In this document: piece after piece, positions 20,754 to 64,000 of the stretch
Numbering within the stretch: the stretch's first letter is position 1
Layout of the letters: every line of letters begins with the position of its first letter
Assembly: GCA_037043015.1 (NCBI GenBank)
Contig: CM073321.1
Location: 30,110,101 to 30,174,100, forward strand
Origin: Bryum argenteum
Lineage: Eukaryota > Streptophyta > Bryopsida > Bryales > Bryaceae
Direction: 5' to 3'
DNA length: 64,000 bases
Program-made: the position numbers and the translations under genes
Notes under the pieces: generated by a model
Told to the model about the DNA's origin: nothing
Databases searched by the model: none
The model's input: the letters and a program-made list of their open reading frames with translations, nothing else

Positions 20754-20787
<34 letters not shown>

Positions 20788-22925: not shown

Positions 22926-23431
22926 GTATATATGGACTTTGACGTGATTTATGGACAGAGAATGGTGTGTAGGGATCGGGAGATAGCTCCATCATCAACA
23001 CAGAATATGATAAAAGAAGTAATTGCAGACGAAAAGTACATGAAAAATACAAAATACACGAAGAAAAACGGAATGTTATGGTCTACGTATTGATTTGTTT
23101 AGAGCATCCTCCGATGCTAATTTTGTGATAGTAGTATACAATCTAAAGCAATGATGATTGAATGAGATGAGCAAAGCCTGTGGAACAATAGAGAATCCGA
23201 GGGAATTCAACAAGAGTGATAACCTCAATAGACCGGGGCGAGTAATTATGAATTGGAATTTTGAAGGACTGTGTAAATTCCACCCAGCGTGGAATTGAAG
23301 GGCAATGATCTATACAAGTTCAGAACATTCTCGAATACATTCATGTAATCGAAGAAGTATCAATGGGGAGATCCACCGATGCAACTCTCGACGGCAATGT
23401 GGTCGCCAAAGGACTGCGAAGATCTTAACTT
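22926..23431. other. Intergenic; first palindrome copy of the window at 23362
   Basis: No gene recognised. At 23362-23381 AATGGGGAGATCCACCGATG is the leftmost copy of the 20-bp palindrome family that fills the right-hand part of the window. Confidence 0.5.
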
Positions 23432-24043
23432 CTATCTACTCTTGTACAGTACAGTTGCTGTCAAAGCTCGCAAAAGCCGGCGACGATACTTTCCATCCAT
23501 CTCAGAGTTGGCGAGAAACTTGCTAACACTTTGATAAGAAGAAAGAGGCAAAATGAAGGGCAACAACGCCGTGGAGATATTAGGGATGATGTTCCGAGAA
23601 TTATGAAAGTCCATCTCCCCCTTCCAAGACTTCGGGAAGTAACAGCACAAATCACCGTTCCGCCTATTCCTCCATTGGCAGTCATCAACCATTAGTATAC
23701 GATCGGGACGGCAAACTCTCCAAGTCGGGTGATCTTTCGTTAAGCGGAGCATAAGTTTTTGGCAGTAAGGGTACCAGTCTGGATTGTGGCACTTATTCCG
23801 TCCATAGACGAATAATAGCTTCGCTCGAATGTCATGGGGAAGCAAATAGTCAATAACAAGACGTAGTTGACCTATAGGCATAGAAGACCAGATGCCAACA
23901 TGAAAGTGCTTAAGGGGAATCCGAAGGAAAGAATGCAGCCCGGGCCGTCGACGGATTCTCTTTAAGTCGAACTGAGATGAGTGACTTCCTCCGTAATCTT
24001 CGAAGCAAAGGACACCGTTGACTGAGAACACAATCACGTTCTG
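23432..24043 (-). pseudogene. FCP1/NIF-like phosphatase domain with altered active site (exon or fragment)
   Basis: About 200 residues match the NIF (NLI-interacting factor, FCP1-homology) fold in order: NVIVFSVNGVLCF, RRRPGLHSFLR, VGIWSSMP, DRILMVDDCQWRN and CYFPKSW. An acceptor-like TATTTATGCAG precedes the first codon near 24043. In active family members the first motif is DxDx[TV]; here both aspartates are replaced (S and N), so phosphatase activity is unlikely. It lies downstream of and parallel to the larger FCP1-like gene, separated from its stop by 590 bp with no recognised 5' exons. It could be a duplicated last exon or the remnant of a neighbouring paralogue. Confidence 0.6.
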
Positions 24044-24634
24044 CATAAATACGACACATTCAGAAAATGTTAGCAAAAGAGATTAGGGTTACAAGTAGAA
24101 GAAGAATATCAGGGAATTCCCTCTCGTTGTAAGGACAGACAATCCCTTATAATCGATGGCAGTTAAAATGAACGCATAACAACGAATGAAAGACAATATA
24201 AGAGAATGGATTAGAAAAGGATGATGTCGAACAAAGTGAAACGTTTTGTATGATGTTTGAAGGTTCTAAGTAAACATACGTAGATATGGAAAACCAAGTG
24301 GCATACGAAATGAATGACCAAGTGTAATTAGAGAAAACTACTTTTAATGCCACTTACAAGCATTAGTGTCAAATGATATGGTCCAATCTACTCATCGGGG
24401 GATCACCCCATGTAAAAATGCGGATGTTGCTTATGGAGAATCGCTTCATAAAACAATTCCGGCTGCTAGTTTGAACTGACAATCAGCGTACTTGGGAACC
24501 AGAATGAAAGCAATGAAAGGTATGGGGCCGTCGACCCATGGATGTCCCAATACTGGTCATTTAGAAGTAGTATAGCACAAAATAGAATCTGTACAGGAGA
24601 CATATGCGAAGTTCGGAACGTAAAGAGTTATTTT
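24044..24634. other. Spacer between two FCP1-like units, with palindromes
   Basis: No coding signal. Two palindrome copies are present: CATCGGGGGATCACCCCATG at 24393-24412 and a diverged one at 24521-24540. Confidence 0.5.
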
Positions 24635-27600
24635 TTACGTAACATGTTGAGGACTTTCCTCTTCAGACGCTGGCGGTAGACCACCCTCAAGTGGGTTGTT
24701 CATGACAAATTCTGAAACTGTTAGACCCGAATGAAAAAGTCTTTGTAGCCAGGGCTTCAGGACGGAAAGTAAGAAGGTGTCCTGACTTCCTGCCCAAGAA
24801 CGAGGGTGTATCGCCGAGTGATTGGCATTCAAGATGCACTTCAGCGGAGTGTCGTCAATTAAGAGAATACGATCTGTGGAACTTAAAGAAAGACGACTCT
24901 GGACGACACGTAAATCCTTAAGCAAGAGGGGCTTATTAGGTGCCACCATGTAGGTCGAAGGCGTGCAGTCCTCTTGGGACAGCAGGAAAATCGCATCTGG
25001 TCGGAACGAGCAACCTTTTGTGATTCTGCTGACCATGTCTTTCACATTCTTCATGGTGGCGGAACTCCAAATGACCATAGATGCATTCGTATGAACAAAA
25101 TTCAGAAGCTCTGTACAGCCCGGTCTTGGAAATACAGGCCTCCCTCCCTTTTTAGAAAATTCGCCCCTCCAACAGAGCAACCCATTCAGGTCAAACACAA
25201 CTACGTATCGCGGTGGTAGTACCTTGGCTTTTTCTTCGACTGTCTTGGGCTTCTCGAGCGCCGTTGAGAGCCTCCCTGCAATGATTCATCTATTAAGTTA
25301 GAGGAAGAAATGTGGTTTGGCTTATACCGGAATTAACGAAGGAAGGACAGATTAGTATGTAGAGCATGTTGAGCGAAGAAAAATATATCTAACTAAAATG
25401 GAGGTAAGCAAAAATAACCTACGTACCCTTATTATCATGACACTCTTTATCTCGCTCCACAGGACTAACCACACTTGGTCCAGCGCATGATACCGGGCGA
25501 TCAAGCGATGGCACACTTACATGTGGACCTTGCTCGACCTGGTAACCAATATTAGTTAATTGCAGAAGCAGACGTTCAAATGCCTTAGGAAGTACAATAC
25601 ATTTAGAGACATCATGTTTAGAATAGAAATACAAAGAGGGACGCTACAAAAGGCTCTTGAAATCATTACCTCTTGAATAGCCTGTCTTGTAGACTTCCGC
25701 ATGACCTTTGAGGCCACCAATTCCGTAGATACGTTCTCCGAAGGACATCTCAGCTTCTCTCTAGCTTCACCTTCCATATCCAGTTCAGTCGGCATTCTCG
25801 TTGGTACATCCACAGTCGATTGTTTGATTGAACAGGCAACCATCGACAGAATCTGTAAAGGATCCTCACGAGGCCTGTCGTATGGATCCGGGGCACGTGG
25901 CACAATTGTAACTGAAGCATCGACCACAGGTACACCAACATCTGTACCCGAACATTCGAGAAGTACCGGAGACTCGTTATCGGTATCCGCATCAAGAACA
26001 AGAGGGGAAACCCGTGCTTCAGGTGGAGATTCTAAACATTGAACCTTTACCACTGAACTCATCGGGCGACCCCCCGATGATAGATGTGAACTCCCCGAGC
26101 CGAGTACGTCCGAGTAATCAGAAATGTTGCTGCGACCCACCTCCAGAAGACGGTCCGGCACGGTCGCCTCATCAGGGCCCACGGATTCCTGAAGTCTTCC
26201 TCCATCCGAATGCAAAGGAGACGGGTTGCGGAAGGGACTCATCTGAACGAGGTCAACTAAGGAGTCTTTCATGCATGGATCCAATGCCAGTTCACAGTCG
26301 ACCGTTGCATCTTTGTATGGTACTAGATGTTGACTTTCAGACTCCGGAGTTTCGATGGGGCGATCCACCGATGGGTCTTCTGACCTGGAAACTACAGAAT
26401 TCAGTGCACCTGATTCCACCCGCTCTGAATCGCGGAGGTCTGCATCGGGTTGAACATTCTCCGAGTCTATGTCCTCAGCAATTTCATTGTGGACGTGTGT
26501 AGTGTCTTCGAGTAGAGGCTGGCTGGGAGAACTTACTGATTCCATTAGGTCAGGAGTGTGGACACGAGCAACGACCGAACGAGGGGCAGAATTACCTCCG
26601 ACAATATCCACGGACTTCCTCTTCTTTGAAGGGACGTTGACCTGTATTGAAGCCGTATGAGTGAGCTCGTCACCGATTGATTGAAAACGGTGCAGATCAA
26701 AGGCAAGAAGGTTTTTTGGGATCCTTGAACATCGACTGTGGTCCGCATATTTAGTAGCTAAAGATACTGAATCCGAATACCCAGAGCCAGGCAAGTGAGC
26801 CCAGGAGATGGCATCAGTGAGATCAACATCATACTCAGGAAGATCCCCGACATACACATTCTCATACACGATCATTTTCTGCATGACAAGATTATTATCT
26901 TGAAATTTGGATGTCTATGAAATTATTGAGGAAGTATGTAATTAATTCGTTCTGATTGGGGTAACTATACATTTAATAGCAGCGCAGTATAGTTCATTGT
27001 CATACCGTGTTTGATTCCCTCTGAGAACCACCAACTTCGTCATGAGCAGTGGACCTAAATCCCAGAGACCGTGCAGCTGCCGGCTTGTTAGAAGTCGAAG
27101 CCTCGATCGGTGCAGACGCATCTTCAGCAACTTCGACGTCATCTACTTGTGTCGATACCTGACGGTCGCCATCATGTGCACGATCCTCGTCGGTATCGTC
27201 AGCGTCACCCGGAGCATCATCTTCGGCAGGGTCATCGTCATCGTTCTCACTGGAATCTGCAAGAAGTTGTGCCAGACGTCTGCTGGATCCTGCGCTTGCA
27301 TCTTTCATGATGACGTCCCACATTGATCTTGCAAGATGAGTGGAGGGAGCGATCGCATCGGCGTTGTTCACAAACTCCAATACAGTTGCAGTGTTCGTCT
27401 GAGGAAGATGAACATGGGGACAGCGGTCGGTCGCCCCATAGCATGATTAGTAGATGCAATGAAAAAATAACAGAGATACAAATCAGAGACATCGGTCGAT
27501 CGCCCCATAGTATGATTAGCAGAGGCAGGGGAGAAAAAACAGAAAAGCGAATTCAGTGTCGCGAGGGAAAAAATAGATTCTTACCAATCCAATATTCGTG

Positions 27601-30600
27601 ATGTTCGGTCCACCATGGACATTGATCAATAATACCCCGTCCCTAATGAAAGACTTGAGAATCTCCCTAGTAGTGCTGAGATTCAAGCACGGCTCGCCAA
27701 GACGTCGCCACTCTCGGTCCACAATATCCTTCATCCACACTCTCGCTCGATATACTCCTTCCAAAGAATTCCCAGTAGTATGTTTCTTCGTCAGCATCCA
27801 GTAGTCGAAGGCCTCTTGCCTACGCGATTCGGGGTTCTTCGCAAAGACAAAGACTATGTATGCAACATAGTCTCGTCCGATGCTGCTTCGGGGGAAATTG
27901 TCATCTGGGCAAGGAATGTAGTGAACGACGTGGTAGTCCCAGGCCTGCGAATTAAGTCTTGCGGACCGCGTATGAATCTCCTTCACAACTTCCACCATGC
28001 CGTCAAGGTCCGTCACAATGATAGCCGCTGCTACACAAGTGATGCGCTTCTTGTCGTCGAGCTCCTCGCAGGCATAAAAAATGCCAGTAAGTCTTCTGCC
28101 CTCCATAAGTCTAGCCTTAGTCTTGCCTTCAACAGTGGTAAAGCAGAAAACGAAAAACAGAACCTTGAGATGTCTATCAGCTAACCACTGTATGGTCACT
28201 TGCTCTTGGATAGCTAAATTGAGATCTCCCCTGAGCCAATCAAAACTCCGGCACTTGTATGATTTTCTGAAGAGTTCTTGAGGAGTCTGTTCGACAGGAG
28301 CCACTTTGACCGCTGCGTAAGACAGAAGGAGAGATTTGATGTTCGAAGGAAGGTCATTGTCTTTCGGATTCTTCACCAAGTTGTTGGTGCGTAGTTTGAG
28401 AAAATCCTCTCCCCCCGGTGAAGACTGTACTTTGTCAAGTAAAGACATCATGACACTGCGATCAATCTTCTTCTTGCGCTCGAACTTGTCCCAATCCGCA
28501 GCAGCGTAAGGAATGTACTCCAGCTTCTTGCTTGGAAGAGGTTTGCTCTCCACTAGGTACAGGAGTCCGTTCTTGAGGACTCGTAACCTCTTCTCCGTGT
28601 TGCAAAAGTCAACCATAGACATCAACGTCGCAGGTTCAGACTTGGAGTTCGTGCTCTTTACGCAAATTTTCTTCTTTTGAATGTATTGCGCCACTGTAGA
28701 GACATCTTCATTCCGCATCCCATGGAGAATTTTCAAGTCGTTCTCGACGAACGGCTTCCTCGGATTAACAGCGACTTCATGTGGAGCCGATTCCCTACCC
28801 CATTGATCAGGAAGACTCCCTGCCAACCACTCTTTCTCAATCTGAACCCAAACTTGGAAGTCGGGATCATCAAGATAAAGCAGTGGAACTCTTCCATCTC
28901 CTGCGTTCTTTCGTTGTGTACCATTACCAGCGAAGATGGCCTTCAGTTGAGGAAGGAATTCAGTCTGCAGGGAATGCCCAAATACATTTGGTAAACATGC
29001 GAAGTAATGGCAACATGACACTACGATAGTCATTAGAAAGCAGAACTAATACTAGAGAACTGCACACTTGAGTCTTATATGATCATCGCTAAGGCATCGG
29101 GGGATTGCCCGATGCTGGTATTATTGCAGAACTGCAAACTTGAGTCTTATATGATCATCGCTAAGGCATCGGGGGGCCGCCCTATGCTGCTAATAATGGA
29201 GAACTGCAAACTTAAGTCTTATATGATCATCGCTAAGGCATCGGGGGATCGCCCGATGCTGGACAAGAAATTATGAATCCTGTAAACATAGAATAATGAG
29301 TTATCTTGGCGGAGGAGAATGATCTGACCTTGAACTTGTCCGAGTGAACGCGCCCACACAGAGCTCGAGGAGGTTTTCCGCAATCCGTCCAAGCGACACG
29401 AGCATTAGAGAGTTGCTCAATATAAGTCTGTTCAGTCCTCTCACCAGCAACATCTTGATTCAGGACTCGCGAAAGATAGAGGAGCAACTTATGGTTCGAC
29501 AGATGGCACCACACAGGTATGATGGCAAAGTTCGATAGCAGATTCTTCTTCAGGTCCGAAATATGTTTCGGACCAAGCACGATTTTCTTGTGAGCTTCAA
29601 CAGTGTGCTGGCCAACAATGATGAAGAAGTGCGTATCTGCTGTGATCTCGCTCTCAACTGGTGCACGGTCGAAGTAAACTGGAGTACCTTTATTTCCGAA
29701 GGCCTTCAGCGGCAAGACAACCACCTGAGCACGGACGAGACTTATATCGAGGACAATGTCTATTGCCATCATTAAATGCTTAAGGCGATCCGGTACGAGC
29801 CTACAATAGACCATCTTCCCCGCTTCTGCAAGGTGTCTCAAACCTCATTTTTTTGTTTTTGTCTCCATTCGGTCCGGTTAGTGGCTAGTACTAGTTAAAT
29901 AGAGGAAATAAAAGCCCTTGTAACGGCCTACCCGGGTAATGACCGGGTAGGGTTAGCTTAACCAGAGACCTGCCTTCCCGGGAGCATCCTTAAGCTTAGT
30001 AGGCAGGATAGGGTAGGGGAACTTTTTTTTGAACTTTCTCTTGCTTTTTAGTTTCCGTTTTTAAACCAGGGCCCGGCCTCGCCGTGCTCAGTCCGGCCGC
30101 TGCATACCCGGGTAAGGCTTAGCTGACCCTTTGCGGGTTGACCTCAACCCGGGAAGGGGTGTCCTGATCGGACATGGCCTGATCGGGCATGGCCTGACCA
30201 GGCATGGCCCAGCCGGTTATGGTCCGGCCGGTTATAGCCCGGTCGGTTATGGATGGCCGGGGATGCCTGTCGGGTGGAAGGACGGGCGGGGCGGAGGAAC
30301 CACCGGCGGCGGCGCCGACAGTCTCGGGCTGACAAGCCCGTGATTAATACGGCGCCGCCAAAAGGTACAGCCACCTCCCCCACTCCCTTTTGTCGTTAGC
30401 GGCGCGGAGGGGGCCGTTACCCTCCTTTTTGCAACCCCCCCTTTCTTCCTCGTTTTGCGTGCGCTGTGCCGACTTTGCCGCTCCCCACATTCTCGCACGT
30501 TCCTGCTGTCGCAACCCTTGCTAGCTCACCTTAGCTTACACCAACTTTTTCCCAACTCTAGCAAGTGTCACGAGGGTGATGGTCTGGTTGGGGTACCCAA

Positions 30601-33600
30601 AAAGGTTGTCCCATGAACAATTGCACTCTATGCTGGTGTGACAAACATATCCATTTTTAAACTCTAATAGAATAAGACTTCATTAGATGTGGTTTTAGTT
30701 GTCTATACTTATAATGTATCAAGAAAAAAAATAAAAATTAAAAAAAATATTTTGAAGTAATTTTATTTGATTTTTTAGTTGAAAAAGTAAGTCATGTCCC
30801 AATAACCTAAAATCCATAGAATCAAGCAAATGGAATATCAACCAATTTTATTTTAATATGATTTTTGAATATGACCTACATCTTCTTGTATAGAATACAA
30901 AATAATTTATTTAATAATAAAAAAATTAATTCATTGTGCACTATAATGCCTGCAAATCCCCAAATTCAACACTTTTTCCCTCATCTATGAATGGATCCAA
31001 AAAAATTAAAAATCTAAAAGAAAATCAGAGGCATATATACTTTGATTTCAAAGAGGTGCATGATATTTTATTTTCTATTTTAGGGTCTTTTTACTTGATT
31101 AAAATGACTAAATTAGACAAACTTTGGAGGCTTTCAATAAAAATAACCTAATTAGTGTGTCCAAAAAGTGATACCCCAAGCTTACCATTGCCCACGAGCG
31201 CTAACTCTGCACATCCCCCACATGCACAAAGTTAGCTCTCCATACCAACCACCAAGCTCACCGCTTGGTTATCAATCCCTCCTACTCATGCAACCGGGAC
31301 TCAACCCCTTCGTAGGTAGCCAATGGTTAGGTGCGGACTTCCACTTATGTCCAAGGCCCAACTTGGTGGCACTCCCATACCACGCGGCCTAACCGCACTT
31401 GGTGGTGTCTCCTCACCACCGCCCATGACCACCATGGTGACCCCAAGGCCACCAAGTAATCACAACGCCGGCGGTGAGACACCACCCCACATCGGTAGCA
31501 CTCATGGTCCTCATTTTGCCTATATGAGTCCCCGTGGTGAAGCCCCAACACTAGCTCCCCCACCGGGACTCACCTTGTCCTATGAGCCACCGTGGTGAAG
31601 CCCCAACACTAGCTCCACCCACCGTGCCTCATTTTGCACTTTGAGTCCCCATGGTGGAGCCCCAACACTAGCTCCACCCATTGGGACTCACCTTGGCTTG
31701 GGAGTCCCCATGGTGAGGCCCCAACACTAGCCACACCACTGGGACTCCCACCTTGGTCACCACCAAGGCACCATGGGAGTGGGGAGGAGACCAGCCCTCC
31801 CCATAGTATACTCTGTGGGATTCGGCAGCCCCTGGTCCTAGGTGAAGGGCTGGACCCTCACACCTCTTAGTTTTGGAAGACCACCCAATCTCCCAATGCC
31901 TTAGCCGCTGGAAGGCCCCGGGAGACTTCCCGAACCTTCCAGGGCTCGTATCTACCTCGTCCCGCATCCAAACGCGACGAGCGACCACTCTATCGACATC
32001 TACTCGTCAAGTAGATGCCGATAGACACCTTACTTGCCTCATTCCGACAAGTATTGAGGGAGTTATGCCCCTCTGAAGATTCGGGAGTCCCGGGCCAGCT
32101 TCCCAGTCCAGCACTGTCCCTGGACAGCACTCCCTTTAGTCCCACAATCTTCCAACTCCCATAACTTTTAGCTCACACCTCCAAATGAGGTGCTCCTTAG
32201 CATCCCGGAATCGTGGCAACATGAGCTTCCATAATCTCATGTCCATTCCGTCGTGGCTCCTAGTCTCCGTGGGTGAGAGGCGTCTCCAACGCCCGGGGTC
32301 CTCTCCCACACTAGGCCCACTTAGGTTCCCTTCACCTTGGCACCCCAAGGCCCGGGCGTCACTCCGGTGTCCCCCTTGGGCCCTTGGTGTTGCGGGCACT
32401 CCTCAAGGAGAGGTGCGCGACACCTGCTCCACGTGGCCGCCCTGCACGCCGTAGCCCGGAGAATAGGAGTACGGAGACATGGCTGGAGAGCGGGCTTCAC
32501 GAATCCGGAGTAAAATTATCCAGGCTGGCATCCCAATGGCGGTGGATGCCCGAGCGCAGTTGGTGCAGGACCTGACGCGGATGGGGTGCGTGGGATTGTA
32601 CTGGGTACCCTGGAATGTGGAGGACGCAGGGATCATCGAGGAGGCCGTGTCCGGACAGGATCCACCGACTTTCGCCGACAACCCTGTCCGGGCCAAGCCG
32701 CATTTTTGGCAGGAGGCGTGCTGGAGAGCGACGTACGGCTTTCCGGATTCCTCCACCGGATACATCCAGGTGAGGAATGATCCCTCCCTCGGTGGGATGT
32801 TCCACAACCCCGCGCACGAGCACGACGGCTACCGAGTGTCAATGCTCGGGAGCGACGGCTGCTGAGGTTCACGGCCCCGATCCTCAACCCGGAGAAGCCA
32901 CAATTTGTTTCAAACCGACTCCTGAAGGCGATCGTGGAATCCTACCTGGGCCGGAAGCGCGTAGGATGGGGGCACATCCTCGAGGAGGTGATCGTCCAGG
33001 CTTCGAAGAAGACCGCCAGTGCGAAGGGTTGTCCCCTGGCACCATACGTGTACCATCTGTATGCGCATTACAAGTGCCTCAACCCGGGTGAGATCACCCT
33101 CCTCAGGATGCTTATGGAGGGCAGACGAGACATGTTTCCCGGGGAGCAGATTCCCGAGGTGGGAGTCCCTGCGGCGGCCAAGCTACTCCCCAGGATGCCT
33201 GCCCCCGGAGCAGGGGCACTTCCACCACCTCCACCTCCTGCACCACCAGGACCGCCGGGCCCAGGAGAGCAGAGGCCTCGGAGGACAGGGACGGTGGCAC
33301 CCCAACCAGGAGATGATGGAGCGCCAGGACCCGGTGCAGGAGGAGCGGCCATCCTTTGGCAAATGGAGGCAGCTCCGCAACCCCTCCCGGAGGGAGTCAC
33401 TCCACCCCGGCCAGCCGCCACACACCGGATGGCAACCCGGAGTGTAGCTGCAACCGGATCGAGCCACCAAGGCCCGACCCTGCCCGGATTGGAGGAGGGC
33501 TTTCCAGTAGCTATGACGACCCCTCCTGCCTCCGTAATTGCCTCCCCTCCGCCTCTCAGGCCAGTACAGGGGAACGACAGTGACGGAGAGGAGCTCCCCG

Positions 33601-44580: not shown

Positions 44581-44581
44581 A

Positions 44582-45075: not shown

Positions 45076-45092
45076 TACGTTTGCTCTACATA

Positions 45093-49818: not shown

Positions 49819-50339
49819 TGTCTTCTTCGTTTTCCACTCTTGCAAAGCGTGGCGAAAGTATAGAATCTCAGGTGATCTTCTTACTTCTGCTCTTGTTCTC
49901 TAGTTTCAAATTCTTTTTTCTGTATTCCTTGCACACTCACTCTCGCTGTCTTATATCAGATTGATGACCGTCAACTAAGCTGATTGATTTGTTTCGGTGT
50001 TTGTAGATGGATCCGTCGTTCGTCGCTACATTCGCAGATTTCATTCTGCAGTCTATCCATACAGACTGTGTGTGGGATCCGGAGTTTCAGTTCAACCTGG
50101 ACTTCGAGTCCTTGCAACTCATCGTCGACCTCACTAGAACATGCTCACTTTTCAGAACGTACCTTCACACCCGTGTCGAGTATTTTGCTCTGAAATTAGC
50201 CGTTTATTATGCAGCAATATCGCAAGTTCCATATTGGGTTTCTCCAGCTCAACAAGTCGTCTTCCACGTGCGGACGATATGGTCTGACTTCAAGAAGTTG
50301 CAGTGTGGTCCTCAAGCTGCCTTCTATCAAAGTGTCTAA
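49819..50339 (+). CDS. Small two-exon ORF of unknown function
   Basis: ATG near 49819 opens a short exon (MSSSFSTLAKRGESIESQ) ending at a CAG|GTGATC donor near 49871. An acceptor (TTTGTAG) precedes 50007, where the frame continues for 110 residues (MDPSFVATFADF ... YQSV) to TAA at 50337-50339. The protein is about 128 residues, without a recognised domain. It may be the first part of the low-complexity gene that starts near 51.9 kb, or an independent small gene. The 50007 ATG is also a possible start. Confidence 0.4.
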
Positions 50340-51827: not shown

Positions 51828-51923
51828 GTGCTCTCTGCGGGTAAAAGGGAGAGGGTTGACTATAGGGACTTCCTCCACGATGACTGTCCCTACGACACGA
51901 AGAAGAACTCATCGTCTGATGAA

Positions 51924-53821: not shown

Positions 53822-54021
53822 TATTTCTGGAGTTGTCAACGTTTGCTGTGGCGCGTCATGTATTATAGACTTTTGGTAGTATTAGTTCCTAGCGTAGTGT
53901 TTCGGTCAAAATTGACAAACACATCCCTTGTACATGGTTGATGTAAATAAACTTATTTTTTATACCAATGTTTTTGCCTTCAAATTGGAGTGTGATTTGA
54001 TTTCCCTAATGTCTTTCTCAG

Positions 54022-56329
54022 TTCACCTCTGGGGATTCATTCTGCGCCCACGGGCCGTGAGATTGCTTCAGAATCCGATCGATCTGGCCCCAATGCCACG
54101 GATGCAATGCATGCCGTCATTGTGGATTTGCTCAGATCGCAGTGTCTCTGCTTTCAATCAGGTATCCTCAACATTATCGTTTCCTTTTATGCCAGGTAGA
54201 ATTGATTTCTCAATTTGAGTGTGTCCCGCGGCTGAGGTCTGCACTCGGGCAGACGGCGCCGCCTCGATGGTTGAATGTCGTCCTCGACATCAATGGGATC
54301 CTTTGTCACTGTGTGCATCTGCCATCGCTCGGGAGGAATTCTCCCATGTGCTCTCCTAGGGACCGGCTCTACGTGCCGGACATCCCAGCGAAGGTGCCCC
54401 CAAAGGCGGTCTTCTGACGCCCGGGAGTGAGAAATTTCTTGGAGACCATGTCCGCCCATGTTGCGAGGGTTGTGATATGGAGTTCGATCAAGAAGTCCAC
54501 TGTTGAGGCCGTCATCGACTACCTCTTCAGTGGACTTCCTAAGCCTTTTGAGATCTTCGGACAAGAGTCTTGTGGATTGGTTGAGGTTAGCAGAGGTGTC
54601 TATTTGTCGTACCCAACCAATGCTCAGAAGAGGATATTTTTGAAAACATTGTACTCTGCGGTGTTCCCGCTTAGTAACGGTGCTGTTGTGTTTGGGTTGG
54701 ATAACACTCTCCTCATTGACGATAGTTCTAGGAAGAATATTTGCAACCACACCGGAAATGCCATTTTCCTCCAGCCTTGGGCAAAATCTAGCCGGGAGGA
54801 CAATACTCTGTCCGCCGTGCTTACTCCATGGCTACTCGCTCTTCTCGCCACTTGCAGGCCTGGGAATCTTTGGTCCTATGTAGACAATCATAGGATTGGT
54901 ATTCCGCCTCTCAATAAGTATAGCAATTTAGGGAGGTTTATTTTAGATGGTACGGCGCAGTCGCATAGGAACTTAGGGCGTACTTACGAAACTCCTTCAT
55001 TTCCTAAGTCATTGTCTAGATGACGGTTAGGGCGCTCTGTATTCCTTTTTGAGGACCTAGTAGATAAATATGTAAATGGGTTGCTATTGTATGAATAACG
55101 TTGGTTTAAATAAAGAAGCCGATTATTTTATCATCCTTTATGTACCACATCGCAATGTGATCAATTTCTATTACGTCATTTGTGGATGCTTGTTCACTTA
55201 GGATTGATGCTGATGATTGTTTCTGCTGTATGACTCTTTCTTTGTTGTTAGTTAGGACGTCATTTTTGCCCGGCCCGGGGATAATCTTTGGAAGTATCAG
55301 CTTGTATGCATTCAGTCTTCTGTTCTCTTTATGTCGAATTTGATTTCACTGGTTGTTTTCTTCTTATGTACTTGTATGCTTTTTGCTTCTGAACATGACG
55401 TCAGTTCTCCCCGGCTTCAGTTATCCCCGCTTCGTGGATAACTCTTCCATGTTTCTTGCGTCCATCTTTCTTGACCGACTCCTTGCATTTCTGGGTTTGT
55501 TCTACAGGTCAAGGCGCCTTCCACCCTCGATGAGTCCAGTGAAGAGGATGATGTCTCCAACCAAACCTCCGTCCCAGAATGTTCTGTTTCACTCTCAGCA
55601 AGTGTTGCCGCCTCTCTCGCGTCGAGGCATTTTGATATGTTCACGGCTACGGACGCAGCATCCGCAACGATGGATTTTACAAGAGATAGTGTTGATGACA
55701 ATGTTGTTGACAGTCCGCCGAGTCGTGGTCCTGTTCGAACTCCGGTTTGCTCTCCGTCTCCCCTGAAGCGGCTTCGTACATCACCATCGCGGAGGCGCTC
55801 TATGTCGCCCGATGCTCTAAATTCGAAAACACCTCAGAGGCAGCTCTACTCCGGTGTGGGTGCTATGGACGTTCCTTTGTGAGATTCAATTGTTCCTCCT
55901 TCCACCATCAACGTGGGTGGGACATCCAATACATCACAACCCGCGATCCAAGTCAACAATTACAACAGTAGCAGGGCAACAAGATCCCTCGGCGATGCCC
56001 CGCGACAACTGCGTTCAAAGGGGGAATTCTTGCCTCTTGCAATGCCACTAACATCGCGCCTCCCACCATCAAGGCGAGCTTCTTGCACACCCCGGCCGTA
56101 TCCTGCGCATGGGGAATCGGCAGCTCCTTCATCCTCTCGTCCTTCGCGTTCTCTTGACTCCCTTCGTAGGCGTGATGGGGAATGTTTTGACACCTGGTTT
56201 GCCCGTCGGAGTGAGACTTTGGGTACAAATTGCCTGCCAAACTCTCGTCGCAATGATCTTATTCGCGCGCTTATGAAGCAGCACGAGGCCGAAGCCAAGC
56301 TGAATGGCTCTAAGTCTAAAGAGACCTAG
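54022..56329 (+). pseudogene. FCP1/NIF-like gene with two in-frame TGA codons
   Basis: A likely first exon is 54022-54161 (donor CAG|GTATCC). The FCP1 unit follows from about 54197 to TGA 55021-55023: NVVLDINGILCHC, RPGVRNFLE, ARVVIWSSIKK, NTLLIDDSSRKN and AIFLQPW. It is interrupted only by TGA at 54415-54417, just before RPGV. After an intron the tail (about 55508-56329) is Ser/Arg-rich and read through to TAG at 56327-56329 except for TGA at 55880-55882. Both stops could come from CGA (Arg) by C-to-T change. The active-site motif is DxN as in the gene at 24.6-38.7 kb. Either a recent pseudogene or a gene using only part of this frame. Confidence 0.6.
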
Positions 56330-57055
56330 CCTTTATGTTCCTCCTTTCTATTCTTCCTCCTCCAAAATGATATCCTTTATCAGCGGAATATATTTAACAT
56401 ATAGTGTTTCGCATTTTGGTGGAACCTAGTACATTTAAGATATCACCACTTACCTAGTTGTGCTTATTGAGGATTATCCCCTTCCTTGACTATGCATTTA
56501 TAGCTCTGATGTGATTAGTATATTCCTCGTATATTCCTCGTATACTCTACAAACATTCTTCTAATTACTCTTTCTTTAGTATTATTAATTAAAGGCACAA
56601 CATTTAATGCCTCTACATTCATTCTCTTATTTCATTCTTTCACGATATACCAATGTCAAAATATAGTGTACACTTGTACAATTGTACGTATTCTTCATAC
56701 TTCAATACAGCCTTTACCATGTCTTCCAACTATGATCTCACTTGAATCAATTGTGACTTCTCATGGGAATTAATGTGAACATGGTTCCTATTTGATTCTT
56801 TACTATGTATTGTTCAATGTCTATTTTTAGAAATACTAAGTTGCCGAATCGATCTCTAATTCCTTCTATTTATAATACGATCTCGTTTTCAAGCCTTTTG
56901 CTTTGTAATTGGACCCTTCAAATCATTCTTTTTGCTGTGAATTTAAATTTCTTCATTTGAAATACTTCAACAACTTTTTCCTTAGCCCCCTTGCGTGTGT
57001 GTTTTTCAACATCTCAATATGTCCATTTTGTCTCAAAATAACGAATATCCCCGTG
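56330..57055. other. Intergenic, AT-rich, no gene seen
   Basis: A partial second-family palindrome (GGATTATCCCC) lies near 56472. Otherwise nothing recognisable. Confidence 0.5.
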
Positions 57056-57735
57056 TACTAGTCGTGCAGTATTTATCTAGTAACTCCTATTAATCATGCA
57101 GTATATACCTGGTAACTCGTATATACCATGCAGTATTAACCTAGTAACTCGTACTAGTCATGCAGTATTTACCTAGTACCTCGTATTAATCATGCAGTAT
57201 ATACCTGGTAACTCGTATTAATCATGCAGTATATACCTAATAACTCGTATATACCATGCAGTATTGACCTAGTAACTCGTACTAGTCATGCAGTATTTAC
57301 CTAGTAACTCGTATTAATCATGCCGTATGCCACTATTTACCTAGTAACTCGTATTAATCATGCATTATGTGTCTGGTAACTCGTATATATCATGCAGTAT
57401 TTACCCAGTAACTCATATTGATCATGCAGTATTTACCTAGTAGTTCATATTAGTCATAATGTATAACCAATCGAAAACATTAGGCTAGGATTCATGACAA
57501 TACTCTGATATATTTTTGTACGGATTGCAAGCGTTGTGAGCAAATTGGTATTTGCAACTTGTAGATTCTATTTTTATTGTGTACCTCGTTTTAAATATGC
57601 AGGATTTACGTAATAACTCGTACTAGTTAGCAGTATTCACCTAGTAACTCGTATTAATCATGGAGTATTTACCTAGTAACTCGTATTAATCATGCAATAT
57701 TATCTTGTAACTCGTATTTGTTATGTTGTATAACG
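57056..57735. repeat. ~32-33-bp minisatellite with mixed unit types
   Basis: About 12 units up to 57460 and three or four more from about 57590 share CATGCAGTATTTACCTAGTAACTCGTA. They differ in the last bases (TTAAT, TATAC, CTAGT), and the order TATAC, CTAGT, TTAAT recurs, hinting at a three-unit higher-order repeat of about 97 bp. The gap at 57460-57590 contains unrelated AT-rich sequence, part of which recurs near 57720-57790. Confidence 0.9.
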
Positions 57736-58379
57736 AATTGGAAACATTATGCCATGATTCTTGACAATACTCTTATATATTTTTGTACGTAAATATTTGT
57801 TTTATTAAGTAACCATTGAATCCATAATTTTAGGTGGAATTTCGAAGCATAAATGGTATTTGCAAAAATTCATTTTTAAGTTCTCAACGTTTGATTTTCA
57901 TGCAATCTAATTGTGGTAAAGTACAGGCTGATCAATCATTTTTCTGCACACAACGAGATTGCTTAGAGAAAGTTCGATCGTTAGATTTGTTTCTTGACAT
58001 ACTTAGCTACATGAATTACTTCATAGAATGGACGTTAGAGCATTTCCCGCGGCCCATTTGAGAGTCTTCCTCCTCCTCAGAATTCCCCTTGGAGAGGAGG
58101 CTACTACCTAGCTGCAATGAATTTGAGGAGTTGACATATGAGTCATTGTACTAGACGTACTCGTGCATGACACTCATGAACTGAACCGAAGTGCATTTGA
58201 TTGCGACCGCCATGTTTTGTAATTATGGTTTTCTAATTTATCTCTCAATGTCCTAGCCAATAACAACGGCTCCCTCCTTTTCTAAAGACCTCCTCTCTCC
58301 CGCTAGAATTCGCATCACTCTTTCAAAACTTCAGCTTGTCTTCTTCATGCAATTCAGTTTCTGAATCAAGTTTCTAGTG
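57736..58379. other. Intergenic, no gene seen
   Basis: A short open frame at 57834-58061 (75 residues) has no recognisable domain. Confidence 0.4.
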
Positions 58380-58725
58380 ATAGTCGCTCTTACATTTTGC
58401 CGCCATCGAGGTGATAGTCGCAATCGTCGTCGTTTGCTCGTGCTGCTCGTGTTGGAGTTGCTCCTCCTGCTCGTCGTGGTGTTGCTCTTGCTGCTCGTGT
58501 TGGTGTTGCTCCTGCTACTTGTGTTGGCACTGCCGCTCTTGCTGCTATTGGTGCTCTTCCTACTGTTGTTGCGCTTTCTGCGCTTGCTACTCGTGTTATT
58601 GTTCTTCACGGTGCTACTCGTGCTCTTCTTCCTCACGGTGCTGCTGGACGTTAGTTCCTCTTCCTCCTCGCCTCCTGCTACTTCTGCAATCGTTGCTGGT
58701 CCTATTGTTGCCGCTGAGTTTTGAC
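58380..58725 (+). repeat. Degenerate GCTCGTGTTG-type repeat, possibly coding an Ala/Val-rich stretch
   Basis: Imperfect short repeats of GCTCGTGTTGGTGTTGCTCC type run from about 58430 to 58640. All three + frames are long: one Leu/Val-rich, one Cys/Ser-rich, one Ala-rich (FARAARVGVAPPARRG... to TAG near 58650). Without splice or homology evidence none can be called a gene. The Ala-rich frame has the most natural composition for a repeat-expanded protein segment. Confidence 0.4.
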
Positions 58726-59566
58726 ATTCTTATACAGGAAGGTAAGAATCACTCATTGATCCCATTAAATCGGTTTCAAATTCTTGAATAATGCAGTGAA
58801 ATCAACGGTGTTCTAGCCGCGCCGCTCAATGAATTTGATAGCTTCCTACCGTATTGCAGAGTTCTGGACTTTGAGCGCTAGTAGTAGTCCAATTGTATTC
58901 AACTGATTATAGGCCTCCTAATCCAACAGCCTCAACGATCATGGTAGGATTTATCGATTTATAATACATCCTCCTCAGTATGGAAATAGTCAATCAACAA
59001 CAAATTGTAATGCTCCTCCATGTTTTCATAGATAAAGTGTTCGCAACGTCAACACTAGAGAGGGGTGATGACGTGTACTTGTACGGATCCGTACTAGAGT
59101 ACACGTCATCGGGCGATCGCCCGATAGTAATTCTGTAAGTACTGAAGAAACAGAACATTATGAGAAAGCCTGTAAGGCATGGGGCGGTCGCCCCATGCAA
59201 TGTCCTCGTCTTTAGAAACTCTGAATTCGCATGGGGCGATCGCCTGATGAAGTAATCGAAGTGAAATAAACTTAAGATAATACCTTGCAGACTACTGAAA
59301 CAATGGAGGCTTATAATTGTGTATATTCAAACTAAGACATCGTGCGACCCGTCTATTTAATACGTGCAGGAAGAGAAGGTCGGAAAACTTGAACATCGCG
59401 CGACCCCCCAATGCTTGTATGAATTAAAGCTTGGGGCCTAGGATTGGGCGATCGCCCCATGAACGCCTCAGTTTACTGAGGCACCTGAAGTTCCGGGCGT
59501 TCCGACGGTTCTGACTTCTTCGTCGTGGTTCCGAGTTGCAATAGCACATCGAGCGATCGCCCGATA
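58726..59566. repeat. Intergenic with palindrome cluster before DUF7869 pseudogene
   Basis: Copies include CATCGGGCGATCGCCCGATA near 59108 (almost the perfect consensus), CATGGGGCGGTCGCCCCATG near 59178 (one central mismatch from perfect symmetry), then about 59231, 59339, 59395, 59442 and 59547-59566. The last ends 16 nt before the ATG at 59583, closely matching its place in the other DUF7869 gene. Confidence 0.85.
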
Positions 59567-59582
59567 AGTTGAGTCCCAAAAT

Positions 59583-62500
59583 ATGGCTTCTGGGAGTGGC
59601 TCGACCACAGACTCGGCTTTTGACATTCGTGCATATGAAGTCCAGCTCCGCATTGGTATGGAGGTCACACTTCTATATCCCGGTATCGGTGCGGTCGGTT
59701 TTGGCGTTCTCATCGACGCTCAGCTCGCTGGGATCTGGGAAGGAGTTTGTTTCCCGCACAATATCGAAGACTATGTTCTTCTTTGCCTATCACAGATTCT
59801 GCCGGGCTTTGAGGATCTGCCATTACAACCTCGGTTCCTTGGGATTACTGTGGTTGGCCATGACTTGAATAAGACCGTTCTTTGGAAAGCTGTCGACTTG
59901 GTAATATCATCGGGCGATCCCCCGATCGATGAGGATGTCCCGGACGAGGACTCTTGCTTCCGACCAAGATCAGAGTGGGTGGGGCATGAAATTCTGAAGA
60001 AGGGCGAGAATGGTCGGCTTGATGCGTCTGGAAGAATAATTTGTTGCTTTCCTGCCGATCATTTCCAAGACACTACTTTAGGCGAAGGCTTCATTGGGGT
60101 CACTGTTCTGCAAGTTATGCACGATGACGTAATGACGATTATGACGCATCAAAAGTGGCCCATTTTAGAATGTTTTTTTGCTTTCAGTGGACGGACTCTG
60201 GATGACACTCTTCTGCACTTTGCTTCAATTCCTGAAGTTGTCGACCCTGACGCATATCTAGAAGGAGTTCAGAAAGCTCCGTATCGATTCCTCAACAGAA
60301 AGCGGTGTGAAGATCCAAAGGTATCTCTATATACCAAAAAGACCGAAGACTCTGAGATTCGCTTGGTCAGTGCCGAGAAGTGTTGCAGTTTTCGATGCTG
60401 CCAGATGTTCCCCTGGACTGATACTCGGGCTGTCAGACAGTTGTTTTATCTGAAGAGTTATGAGGATCGTCGTGAGTATGCCATTGCGGTTGGAGGACAT
60501 ATGCATGCAATGGAGGGGAGCATGAGAGTGAAGTATATGACGCTTATGGGATGTGAGGTCTGTGCTACCGCTTGGTATAAAATTCATGGTATTGCCAAGT
60601 CTACATTCCATACGTACATGGAGAAGTACAATGAAGGCGTACTTTCAGGACAACACGGAAATAAAGGATGCGAGCTGCCCGGATCGGGACAATTCAAGCC
60701 ATGGGCACAATTGCTGCTATTGTGGCAGAGAACGCGGATCAAATGCCTAACCAGATGCATGGAACTGGAAAGCACGGGCGGATGGATACTTTGAAGTATC
60801 TTCCGTCTAGAAACAATTGGACCCGAGTGCATGCTGATGCAAATGAGGTACGATTTCCAGTGTACTTATTTATTGCAGTGTTTATTGTTGTGTCAGCTTC
60901 TGAATATGGGTATCGGGCGGTCTCCCGATGCTTGCATTGAAGTGCGTCCATTGCTTTCACTTCGTTCTTATGTAAGCTTACTTATGCACTTTGATTACTA
61001 GACAAACGCGTCTTACGGCCTTCCGCCTGTCAGCCAGTCTGCTATAAGCCGGATCAAGAAAGGCATGTTCAACAACGTTGCTATCAAACCAGTAGGAAGC
61101 AGTTTCGCCAAATGTACCGAATGCGACAAACTGCAGCAGTTTCTTCTCAGGTGTCTAAAGGGCAGCCCCGAGTATGTGTCATTCCTGAAGCAACGAACTT
61201 CGCATTTGAATCATCAAGCGTCATGCCGTCGACTCTACGCATCTTGGCGAGAAGAATCAAAGCAAAATCCGCAAGAATATCTTTGCGTTATTCACGACAA
61301 AATGGATACAGCAAAGACAGCTCTTCCAAGGATGCGGACTACAACAAAGGCGACCTCTGGTTTGGGACAGCTTCCCATGAATGTTATTGGGATGGTTGCT
61401 CATGGCCATTGCGATGGCGCGTTTGCGCATTACTCGCCGGATTGCTCGCCGTGCGATTCCAACGCCACCATTTCTTCTCTTGCGAGATTATTCACGCAGC
61501 TTTTGGAGCCACCGCTCCGAGAGTCACGGGAGCTTTTTCCCCATCCCCCAGCAAACTCCCTGTTCGAAGCTTTGCTACACGGAAAGTCCAGGTGCATTGA
61601 TGCTTTGACGGTGATGGATCCAAACAAATGTACTGGCCGTTCTCCGCTACCCCCCAACTTGTATCTTCAATTGGATAATTCCGCGAAGGACAACAAAAAC
61701 CAGTTCCTGATGGCCTTCCTATCTTTGCTTACGGCAAAGGGGGTGTTCAAGGAAATCCAGGTGGGATTTCTTCTTGTGGGACATACTCATGAGGATATCG
61801 ATGCGTATTTCAGCCATCTATCAAAGGCACTCAAAAACAGGAATACTTTCGTACTGGCGGACCTGATGAAGGCATTTATGCAATCCCAGGAATTGTCTTT
61901 CATGCCAGAGTTTGTGCAGGAGATTGCAGACTTCAAGTCCTACATCAAGGGCTACCAATGCGATGGGGAAACTCGATTAATTGGCCTTGGGGAAATGCAC
62001 CTCTTCAAATTCTTTGTTGACTCTGATGGTTGGCCGGTCATGAGATGGAAGAAATCAGCGGTGGATACGGAGTGGCAACCGCAAAACAAGCCAGCAATTT
62101 GACTTTGGAAAGAGGACGAATACGGGCGTCCATTACTACTGACTGGTCCGTTAAATCCAGTCCCTTTTAAGCATATGTGGGGCAGCGAAGTTCCATCCGC
62201 AACGGTGAATCAGGAGAAGGCAAGAGAGTCTGCAGCAAAAGCTACAGAAAGGCAGACTTTCATGGTACTCGGAATCCGTAAGTACATTGAGTACTGGGAG
62301 AGTGGTCGTAGAAGGTGCTCGACGTTTGGTGCTGCATTCGAACCGTATGTGGAATACTGGTCTTGAGTTCTCCATGAGCTTCAGATGCCTCTCCCTCCAA
62401 CACCGTCTCGTCTTGTGGAGGGCTTTTGGCCCCTACATGATTGGCGCGGGCCGTTGGTCACCATCCCACGCTTGACTCTATTACCATTCGACTCAACTCC

Positions 62501-62930
62501 TGAGGAAGAAGAACCCGAGGCATATTGCGGGCCAGCAAACGAACGGCCCGAAGAGCGATTTAATCCTTGGCGCCAGATTGCCCCTCTCTGGTGGGTCCTT
62601 CTGAGACCTGAAAACCCTATAGTATGTCCAGTATGGCTGGGAAGGGCTGTGTCTTCAGTGTGTAGGGATGAAGGGGATGAGAACTTTGGAAAGTTCCTTA
62701 TCCAGTATTGGGAGCCCCAGAATGCTGCACGAGACATGGCTAAGAAGTATGAGAATGGTTGGTCAGCTAAGTGGGTTGTCGAGAACCGCCGTCTCGAATG
62801 GATCGATGTTGGTGCTGTTTTGTACGCTTCTTTTTCAAGGATAGCTGATCCGAAGTCACGTACTAAACCCTTAAGGGATAAAGCGCGGCCGTTGGTCAAC
62901 TTGATGAGAGCGAATATTGCTGATTTGTAA
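59583..62930 (+). pseudogene. DUF7869-family protein, paralogue 2, disrupted
   Basis: Same two-exon plan as 45093-48453: exon 1 59583-60847, a 154-bp intron, exon 2 61002-62930. Core motifs are kept: FAKCTECD, LCVIHDKMDTAKTALP, LYLQLDNSAKDNKNQ and VGHTHEDIDAYFS. Three lesions: a missing base near 60667 (after GNKG), TGA at 62100-62102 where copy 1 has CGT (Arg), and TGA at 62364-62366 where copy 1 has CGG (Arg). After each TGA the frame resumes as a good match. Exon 1 has a palindrome copy at about 59908 read as SSGDPPID; copy 1 has an equally long, different sequence there. Differences between paralogues are largely synonymous, so both were under constraint before this one decayed. Confidence 0.85.
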
Positions 62931-63765
62931 AGCGGATTTTCATGACAGGGCAAGTGATTGGTGCATCATCGGGGGATCGCCCGATGGGCATTTTTCAATC
63001 TTAGTACGACTTGAGACGTCGAGATGTTGTGGACTTCGGTTCACTTTGGGAGGTTCCTAGTGGTTTTAGTTTGGATTTTGCTACTTTGCGTAAAGAAGAT
63101 GTTTGGGGTCCTCTACTTTTTCATCCTACCATATTACATTCTTTGGAGAATGTAAATTTATATGAGATATTATTTTATGGAATTTTATATGTTTCAGTTC
63201 AATGTTCTCTAGCTCGTACGTGCTGATGTGTGCATGTTTCGCTACAAGATGTTTTGTGACATGTTATAGACGAAATGAATTTTCTTTGAGGTGCTTCTAT
63301 TTCTAGGATAGCAAATCCAAAGTCACGTTCTATGTCCAAAAGCGATAAAGCTCGTTCGTTGATCAACTTGACGACTGCGATCATTGTTCATCCGTATATC
63401 GGATTTTTCATGACAGGGCAAGTGAGTGGTGCATCATCGGGGGATCGCCTGATGGGCATTTTTTATTCTTACATCGACTTCAGACCCTGAGATGTTGTGG
63501 ACTTCGGTTCATTCTGGGAGGTTCATATTGGTTTTAGTTTGGGTTTTTCCAATTTGCTTAAACAAGATGTTTGGTGTCCTCATCTTTTTTGGCGTACCAT
63601 ATTACATACTTTGGAGAATGTAAAGTTATCTGAACGATTTATTGATGAAATTTTATATTTTTCATTTCAATGTTCTCTAGCTTGTTCGAGCTCATGTGTA
63701 TTTGTTTTCGCCAGAAAATGTAATGTGAGATGTTTTAGACAAATGGAGTTTTCTTCGAGGTGTTG
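62836..63765 (+). repeat. Tandem duplication (~465 bp x2) of the 3' end and flank of the DUF7869 pseudogene
   Basis: The last part of exon 2 (from AGGATAGCTGATCCGAAGTCACG, about 62836), the stop region, the palindrome near 62966 and the next 300 bp recur from about 63303 in diverged form (AGGATAGCAAATCCAAAGTCACG). The second unit has its own palindrome near 63433 (CATCGGGGGATCGCCTGATG). The duplicated coding tail is not open and is not a gene. Confidence 0.85.
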
Positions 63766-64000
63766 CAGCCTGGACTGTGTGTCTGATATTGCACTATGCT
63801 CGGGTTTAAATTCGGCCATAGAATCAGGCGGTCGCCCGATATTGATTGACTGATGCAAGAATTTTATTTCTCTGCAGAGGCTTCGGAGCAGCGCTACTGG
63901 GTCTGTCAGTAGACCTAAAGTGCTCTTGGATCGGGCTATCGCCCGATATTTCTTCTTGGTGCTCGATATAATAATCTTGATAGTTTACTTACAATTGACA
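63766..64000. other. Window end, two more palindrome copies
   Basis: ATCAGGCGGTCGCCCGATAT near 63823 and ATCGGGCTATCGCCCGATAT near 63930. No gene seen. Confidence 0.6.

What the first reader, a model, noticed from the sequence alone, without database searches (positions are those of the whole stretch)
23362..63950. Dispersed 20-bp palindrome family, consensus CATCGGGCGATCGCCCGATG
More than 50 imperfect copies counted by eye lie in the right 41 kb, singly and in clusters, in intergenic DNA, introns and exons. None was seen in the first 23 kb or in the 6.78-kb insertion. Common forms pair arms that no longer match (CATCGGTCGA with TCGCCCCATG), so substitutions are not compensated, which argues for a DNA-level role or spread rather than a conserved RNA hairpin. 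It resembles mobile 'GC cluster' palindromes of fungal mitochondria in style, but I know of no such nuclear plant family.
Basis: partly seen in the sequence, partly recalled or inferred. Interest (0 to 1): 0.85.

Follow-up and report, generated by a model that had tools for sequence, protein, structure and literature searches.

The report
Giant moss transposon's own palindrome code
The scattered 20-letter palindromes are built-in parts of very large jumping genes in what is probably a moss, and related jumping genes carry their own different version of the palindrome, which suggests each uses it as a private docking site for its own protein.

Summary
The palindromes are real: 52 in the window match at least 15 of 20 bases, 0.15 expected; 1,121 genome-wide at up to 3 mismatches, control 0. 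They are internal parts of a giant DNA transposon, not a free mobile repeat. Element A fills window 22913-51622, with inverted ends ATGCA...TGCAT and 4-bp target duplications in 9 of 9 other A pairs fetched. It sits in a second such element, B (right junction only). All 57 sites in the window plus the next 10 kb lie in A or B, none in 37.6 kb of other or nested DNA. Sites outlast diverged surroundings and avoid ORFs. Relatives carry other palindromes: one locus at C1:24.29-24.31 Mb holds 24 of 25 genome matches to GATAGGAAGATCTTCCTATC (up to 3 mismatches, control 7), and a 50%-identical gene has 17-bp palindromes. Best reading: binding sites of an element-encoded, family-specific dimeric protein, working like the VANC/motif anti-silencing system of Arabidopsis VANDAL transposons. 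Protein and effect are inferred. The host is probably a moss (LEAFY type, recalled).

The parts
22913..51622 (.). Giant TIR DNA transposon, element A (28.7 kb here, 21.9 kb without the nested 6.78-kb insertion)
   Evidence: 26 of 40 other match rows start at 22912/22913; TIR pair; 9 of 9 other A pairs fetched have 4-bp target duplications, read by eye
22913..22937 (+). left terminal inverted repeat of A (ATGCATTATTTAAGTATATATGGAC)
51598..51622 (-). right terminal inverted repeat of A, 1 mismatch to the left one
51623..64000 (.). right part of element B, in which A sits; B ends at L046:2120 (window coordinate 66120) with a related TIR
   Evidence: B copies L020-L023; right TIR, 4 mismatches to that of A; B copy L023 runs on through the A insertion point; the left junction with B was not seen
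22974..22993 (.). weak (14/20) subterminal palindrome, 36 bp inside the left TIR
23362..24540 (.). palindromes at 23362, 24393, 24521 (the last 14/20)
25491..27509 (.). palindromes at 25491, 26060, 26354 (the latter two in an ORF), 27421, 27490
29056..29262 (.). 72-bp tandem array, one palindrome per unit (29095, 29167, 29239); 3 units here, 6 in copy L024
37494..38290 (.). palindrome array, 13 sites, mostly in 167-bp units (spacings about 83/39/45)
44583..45075 (.). 7 palindromes at the 5' side of the DUF7869 gene of A
46396..46415 (.). palindrome in the apparent intron of the DUF7869 gene; the same intron holds different palindromes in L043 and L074
48490..48672 (.). palindromes 3' of the DUF7869 gene (48490, 48653); 3-5 sites in several other copies
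50631..51557 (.). right subterminal palindromes 50722, 50854, 51074 and weak (14/20) 50631, 51538
51704..51821 (.). 4 palindromes in 30/38-bp tandem units (element B)
59107..59927 (.). 7 palindromes with >=15 matches around the 5' side of the B DUF7869 gene (59908 lies in its first ORF)
60911..60930 (.). palindrome in the apparent intron of the B DUF7869 gene
62967..63948 (.). palindromes 62967, 63435, 63822, 63929 3' of the B DUF7869 gene (five more in L046, up to 65.8 kb)
45021..46385 (+). first ORF of the A DUF7869 gene
46513..48453 (+). second ORF, DUF7869 (PF25273, E 2e-42); candidate acidic residues D103 or D106, D229, E268; putative transposase
23432..25285 (-). two NIF-type (PF03031) phosphatase-like ORFs, 23432-24082 and 24635-25285
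27516..37522 (-). ORFs of what may be one long minus-strand gene of unknown family, interrupted by the insertion 29836-36612
54418..55023 (+). NIF-type phosphatase-like ORF of element B

Best explanation
The palindromes are cis-acting sites built into a family of giant TIR DNA transposons (about 21-25 kb in the three shortest full-length pairs measured) in what is probably a moss. Related families have their own palindrome, spread over introns, intergenic DNA and subterminal regions. I infer that a protein encoded by the element binds it as a symmetric dimer, each arm being a half-site that may vary on its own. Coating many sites along the element, such a protein most likely keeps it unmethylated and transcribed, and marks it for its own transposase. 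Binding is thereby private to the family, in the way VANC proteins act on VANDAL motifs. New sites arise largely by local tandem duplication and travel with the whole element. SHOWN: element ends, 4-bp duplications, confinement, constraint in diverged copies, ORF avoidance, different palindromes in relatives, tandem-unit variation. INFERRED: binding by an element protein, the dimer, anti-silencing.
For: Confinement: 36 sites in A, 21 in B, 0 in 37.6 kb of other or nested DNA. Constraint: sites kept in diverged copies 16 of 16, 9 of 9, 13 of 13 and 15 of 17, against neutral means of 10.9, 3.6, 7.7 and 10.2 (L025, L012, L002, L023). Non-coding bias: 6 of 57 in the chosen ORFs, expected 25, P 5e-8; 12 of 57, expected 24, P 6e-4 with all 20 ORFs of 180 aa or more. 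Different dyads in relatives: L043 (DUF7869 61% identical) has four perfect GATAGGAAGATCTTCCTATC in the intron where A has its own type; 24 of 25 genome places at up to 3 mismatches lie within 24 kb of that one locus, control 7, which also has a NIF-type ORF. L074 (50%) has eight 17-bp palindromes of the RTCGGCTGCCGGCCGAY kind; this type has 898 forward and 871 reverse matches, controls 0 and 1; of the places listed, five groups lie at 50%-identity DUF7869 genes. Tandem units differ in number between copies. TIR ends carrying a related palindrome about 30 bp inside: 41 + 46 matches, control 0. VANC21 motifs lie in introns, intergenic and terminal non-coding regions, vary by tandem repeats and differ between families (PMC5735166, section 5 part 1 and sections 9, 10).
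Against: No methylation or expression data are available. In closely related copies the sites are no better conserved than their flanks (L024 94.5% against 95.6%, L022 93.5% against 96.7%). Sites were picked by their match in the window, and L025, L002 and L012 share the same array, so overstates independence. Many listed groups of the 17-bp type have no DUF7869 row, which however scored only 68 of 2,022 candidates. VANC motifs are short and not described as palindromes in the sections I read. The subterminal palindromes fit a transposition role as well.
Confidence: 0.66

Rival explanations
1. The palindromes are binding sites for transposition itself: the transposase or a TNPA-like accessory protein bound to subterminal repeats brings the ends together.
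For: Weak palindromes lie near both TIRs of A (22974, 51538). Ends of short or unexplored TIR elements carry a related palindrome (CATGGGGAGATCCCTCCATC, 13-14 of 20 to the A consensus) at a fixed distance inside the TIR. In En/Spm, TNPA recognises subterminal repeats that are cis-determinants of excision (PMC2613891, passages).
Against: Most sites of A and B lie far from the ends, in introns and gene-flanking DNA. The end-proximal palindromes of A are weak matches. Of five such ends or short elements read, L069 has no site with 13 or more matches, and cannot give the share of ends without one because its pattern demands the palindrome.
Confidence: 0.35
2. Host transcription-factor sites hijacked by the element.
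For: Sites cluster at the 5' side of genes and in introns.
Against: In the same genome related elements use different palindromes, one of them essentially private to a single locus. A shared host factor does not predict this.
Confidence: 0.12
3. A free-living mobile mini-palindrome, like mitochondrial GC clusters.
For: Many near-identical short copies in diverse contexts.
Against: Confinement to elements; 1,291 of 1,344 comparisons share the site and no clean isolated 20-bp insertion was seen; copies increase by tandem units.
Confidence: 0.03
4. RNA hairpins (terminators or processing signals).
For: Sites occur in introns and 3' of genes; the L043 intron palindromes are perfect.
Against: Arms vary independently within the family. 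Sites also occur at the 5' side of genes and in arrays between genes.
Confidence: 0.07
5. Neutral passengers: sequences merely duplicated within the element.
For: Many sites are in tandem units, and recent copies show no extra conservation.
Against: Retention in diverged copies, ORF avoidance, and different dyads in the same intron of relatives.
Confidence: 0.06

Closest known systems
VANDAL transposons with VANC anti-silencing proteins (Arabidopsis; PMC5735166 sections read, PMC10398659 abstract)
   Same: Short family-specific motifs in introns, intergenic and terminal non-coding DNA of a DNA transposon; motifs lie in tandem repeats that gain and lose units; related families use different motifs.
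   Different: Here the motif is a 17-20 bp dyad, the element is 21-25 kb with 4-bp duplications and encodes DUF7869 and NIF-type phosphatases; no DUF1985/DUF287 domain appeared in the Pfam scans of the ORFs tested; no methylation data.
CACTA/En-Spm elements with TNPA-bound subterminal repeats (PMC2613891, passages)
   Same: Large plant TIR transposon with many repeated motifs, divergent between families.
   Different: Ends are ATGCA...TGCAT, not CACTA; duplications of 4 bp, not 3 (PMC10741241, passages); sites throughout the element, not only subterminal.
Sola superfamily (4-bp duplications, some over 15 kb, reported in Physcomitrella; PMC10741241 and PMC9033089, passages)
   Same: 4-bp target duplications, TIRs, moss host, large size.
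   Different: Transposase homology to Sola could not be tested; no palindrome code of this kind appeared in the passages I read.
Mitochondrial GC clusters (recalled)
   Same: Short GC-rich palindromes in many copies.
   Different: No sign of independent mobility, and nuclear.
HIP1 GCGATCGC of cyanobacteria (recalled)
   Same: The consensus core happens to contain GCGATCGC.
   Different: The core is variable here (positions 8 and 13 pair in 26 of 57 sites), and the sites are confined to transposons.

Membership tests
TIR DNA transposon | terminal inverted repeats with precise ends | tested here: met
   26 of 40 other rows start at 22912/22913; TIR matches 100 + 96 at up to 3 mismatches, control 0
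TIR DNA transposon | target site duplication | tested here: met
   Perfect 4-bp duplication in 9 of 9 other A pairs fetched; none at the window's A copy, at the one B pair fetched, or at the short element L068
TIR DNA transposon | DDE/D transposase | tested here: inconclusive
   DUF7869 ORF with invariant D103, D106, D229, E268 in 7 aligned copies; no fold available, no convincing PDB match
Sola superfamily | 4-bp target duplication | tested here: met
   definition from PMC10741241 passages
Sola superfamily | homology to a Sola transposase | not testable with these tools
   no Sola reference sequence at hand; PMC2727372 is not held
CACTA/En-Spm | CACTA/CACTG termini and 3-bp duplications | tested here: not met
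   ATGCA...TGCAT and 4 bp; definition
VANDAL/VANC system | family-specific motifs in non-coding DNA varying by tandem repeats | tested here: met
VANDAL/VANC system | VANC protein (DUF1985/DUF287) | tested here: not met
   no such Pfam domain in the ORFs scanned; not every small ORF of the element was scanned
VANDAL/VANC system | hypomethylation caused by the protein | not testable with these tools
   no methylation data or bench
GC-cluster-like mobile palindrome | isolated insertion with empty site | tested here: not met
   none seen among 53 site absences in 1,344 comparisons

The most novel reading that the evidence does not exclude
An undescribed group of giant moss DNA transposons (DUF7869 plus NIF-type phosphatases) whose families each carry a private palindromic address code, rewritten in concert across some two dozen sites when a family splits, and read by a co-evolving element protein to escape silencing: an independently evolved counterpart of the Arabidopsis VANC system, based on dyad sites.
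Probability: 0.35. Interest if true: 0.82.

Novelty: new variant of a known kind. Interest (0 to 1): 0.64.

Why it matters
Sequence-specific anti-silencing by motif-binding transposon proteins is described for Arabidopsis VANDALs (PMC5735166, PMC10398659). A moss transposon group with the same logic, but larger elements, other genes and palindromic sites, would show that private self-recognition codes evolve repeatedly. It would also give natural pairs of protein and site for testing how such codes are rewritten. DUF7869, which no held paper names, would gain a likely role.

Tried and rejected
Chance or composition was rejected. Free mobility was rejected. A role as a conserved RNA hairpin was judged unlikely from the per-pair counts; no RNA family search or folding was run.

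DUF7869 as a known transposase could not be settled: only chance-level PDB matches for exon 2 (4, best E 0.28) and exon 1 (1, E 1.1), structure prediction switched off, no paper naming DUF7869 in one search. Paper searches for VANC, giant transposons with liverwort, bryophyte palindromic TIR transposons (0 papers), subterminal repeats, moss genomes, moss sex chromosomes with giant transposons, NLI factor with transposase, superfamilies with 4-bp duplications and Sola showed no description of this element; for most papers I saw the listing only.

Whether the long minus-strand gene (ORF 27516-29045) accompanies DUF7869 in other families did not complete: the request failed. The right end of the L043 element was not found in the 1.2 kb fetched. 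One search's second half failed for a file name and was redone.

Method notes: searches used window plus L046 joined. One search used 28 fetched loci (L002 and L004 overlap), nine loci, picked as diverged. The 62 places and the element markers were copied by hand, whose listings are cut or lower bounds. ORFs were chosen by me from stop-to-stop frames; left out were overlapping or opposite-strand frames, among them 44334-44966 (-), which covers six sites; one search counts them.

A first corrected version did not fit the form and is repeated here in the right shape.
Full report
THE OBSERVATION. The window holds 52 sites matching CATCGGGCGATCGCCCGATG in at least 15 of 20 positions, against 0.15 expected from 20 order-2 Markov replicates; at up to 3 mismatches 39, against none in 100 shuffles. 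The genome (258.8 Mb, 25 contigs; the window is C1:30110101-30174100) has 1,121 matches at up to 3 mismatches, control 0. So the window, with 39 of 1,121 in 64 kb, is about 140 times denser than the genome average. The host carries a LEAFY gene on C5 with aspartate in the 'KPKMRDYVHCYALHCLD' stretch. I recall that aspartate as the moss type, so I take the host to be a moss; the species is not known to me.

THE ELEMENT. Many genome matches recur with the same spacings, and fetched loci are colinear with the window for kilobases. A search with window 22800-24400 gave 41 rows (40 of 71 candidates scored, so a lower bound). Of the 40 rows other than the window itself, 26 start at 22912/22913, 4 more 4 to 9 bases before, and 10 elsewhere. 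At that point stands TGCATTATTTAAGTATATATGGAC; its inverse, with one change, stands at 51598-51621. The TIR pattern has 100 forward and 96 reverse matches genome-wide at up to 3 mismatches, control 0. I fetched both ends of ten pairs chosen from that list. Read by eye, all nine A-type pairs show ATGCA...TGCAT ends with perfect, all different 4-bp duplications (ATAC, GCTT, TTGT, TGTT, TTAA, TAGG, AAGG, TCTA, CAAG). The one B-type pair and the window's A copy do not. Two A copies of near-basic length measure about 21.4 kb (C1:8.20 Mb) and 21.9 kb (C3:23.7 Mb), a B pair 25.0 kb; other A pairs span 41 to 147 kb, presumably with insertions. So A is a giant TIR transposon. The window copy is 28.7 kb because a 6.78-kb insertion (29836-36612) interrupts it; copy L024 shows that site empty. 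Right of A the sequence belongs to a second, related element, B, which ends with a related TIR at window coordinate 66120. In B copy L023 the sequence runs on through the point where A sits, so A lies in B. Only this right junction was seen: the DNA left of A is piggyBac-type, and the missing duplication suggests a later rearrangement.

GENES. A encodes a two-ORF gene with DUF7869 (PF25273, E 2e-42), two NIF-type phosphatase-like ORFs and minus-strand ORFs, perhaps one long gene, without a convincing Pfam match. The DUF7869 ORF has 82 match rows in the genome, a lower bound since 68 of 2,022 candidates were scored; 62 are on C1, which is 17% of the genome. Seven aligned copies keep D103, D106, D229 and E268, which makes DUF7869 my candidate transposase. 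This is inference: no convincing PDB match, no fold available.

WHERE THE PALINDROMES ARE. In the window plus the next 10 kb there are 57 sites with >=15 matches: 36 in A (21.9 kb net), 21 in the B part (14.5 kb), and 0 in 22.9 kb left of A, 0 in the 6.8-kb insertion and 0 in 7.9 kb right of B. Of 62 listed genome places with 0-1 mismatch, 58 lie within 25 kb of an element marker, while 6.9% of C1 does. Of the four others, the two that were fetched (L013, L019) still match element DNA; the other two were not looked at. Sites avoid ORFs: 6 of 57 in 14 ORFs that I took as genes, 25 expected, P 5e-8; 12 of 57 in all 20 ORFs of 180 aa or more, 24 expected, P 6e-4. Several sites lie in tandem units that differ in number between copies: 72-bp units 3 times here and 6 times in L024, and 167-bp, 30-bp and 86-bp units elsewhere.

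CONSTRAINT AND MOBILITY. In diverged copies the sites persist while non-coding DNA changes: 16 of 16 (L025), 9 of 9 (L012), 13 of 13 (L002), 15 of 17 (L023), against neutral means 10.9, 3.6, 7.7, 10.2, the observed value being reached in 0, 0, 0 and 2 of 200 simulations. Five further loci keep all their 2-4 sites but are not informative alone (reached in 13, 17, 28, 37 and 176 of 200). Sites were chosen by their match in the window, which favours retention somewhat, and three loci share the same array. Over 28 loci the identity is 93.8% in sites and 89.0% in flanks; in close copies there is no difference or the reverse, which limits the claim to the older divergence. Of 1,344 comparisons of a site with another copy 1,291 share it. 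Among the 53 absences I see substitutions, central deletions, alignment edges and tandem-unit gaps, no clean isolated insertion.

THE DECISIVE COMPARISON. Relatives have other palindromes in the same places. L043 (DUF7869 61% identical) has four perfect GATAGGAAGATCTTCCTATC in the intron where A has GATGGGGCGATCGCCCCATG. Genome-wide that type has 25 places at up to 3 mismatches (control 7), of which 24 lie in C1:24290715-24314283, one locus that also carries a TIR-like end (6 mismatches to that of A) and a NIF-type ORF (E 1.7e-14). I did not find its right end. L074 (50% identical) has eight 17-bp palindromes of the RTCGGCTGCCGGCCGAY kind, in or beside its intron and 3' of the gene. That type has 898 forward and 871 reverse matches at up to 1 mismatch, controls 0 and 1. 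Of the places listed (the first on C1) five groups lie at 50%-identity DUF7869 rows; other groups have no such row in the partial list. Other TIR ends carry a related palindrome, CATGGGGAGATCCCTCCATC, about 30 bp inside: 41 + 46 matches, control 0, on C1-C11. Of five such ends or short elements read, four have a site with 13-14 matches to the A consensus and L069 has none. A dyad that is replaced by another dyad at many sites of one element, with symmetry kept, is what co-evolution with a cognate dimeric protein predicts. Within the A/B family single arms vary on their own (T7 or A14, G4 or C17), as half-sites of a dimer may.

MECHANISM. I judge it most likely that an element-encoded protein binds these sites all along the element and keeps it open for transcription and transposition. 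VANC21 of Arabidopsis binds YAGTATTAY motifs in introns, intergenic and terminal non-coding DNA, causes loss of methylation, and its targets vary by tandem repeats and differ between families (PMC5735166, section 5 part 1 and sections 9 and 10; PMC10398659, abstract). The anatomy here is alike. The alternative, transposition sites as in En/Spm TNPA (PMC2613891, passages), fits the end-proximal sites, and both may be true. No binder was identified and no methylation data exist here.

WHAT IT IS NOT. It is not a CACTA element (ends and duplication differ). Membership in Sola, which makes 4-bp duplications, can exceed 15 kb and is reported in Physcomitrella (passages), could not be tested. It does not behave as a mobile mini-palindrome.

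NOVELTY. In the paper searches I ran I saw no description of this element or of a palindromic code of this kind; that library holds open papers only, and I saw mostly listings. I call it a new variant of a known kind.

Noticed in passing
window 1-3277 and 19558-22825: Two stretches in inverted orientation, 98.9% identical, left of element A; ORF 21712-22917 there matches the piggyBac-type domain DDE_Tnp_1_7.
   Followed up: partly
window 7481-8419 (-): Open 312-aa Tc1/mariner-type frame (DDE_3, HTH_Tnp_Tc3_2).
   Followed up: no
window 29836-36612: 6.78-kb insertion with a GC-rich part in the minus-strand ORFs of A, flanked by a short duplication (CAAGGT), empty in copy L024; no terminal repeats found by self-comparison.
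   Followed up: partly
G000 C1 (44.1 Mb): The giant elements are crowded on one chromosome: 62 of 82 DUF7869 rows and 31 of 41 left-end rows on C1, which is 17% of the genome (both lists are lower bounds); C1 may be a low-recombination or sex chromosome (inference).
   Followed up: no
window about 42717-42904: Short element with its palindrome CATGGGGAGATCCCTCCATC and TIR-like ends, nested inside A.
   Followed up: partly
window 41263-42434 and 57055-57789: Satellite-like arrays (176-bp and 32-bp units) inside the giant elements; shared with other copies.
   Followed up: no
window 23432-25285, 54418-55023; L076:236-859: NIF-type (CTD-phosphatase-like) ORFs carried by a DNA transposon, also at the L043 locus.
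   Followed up: partly
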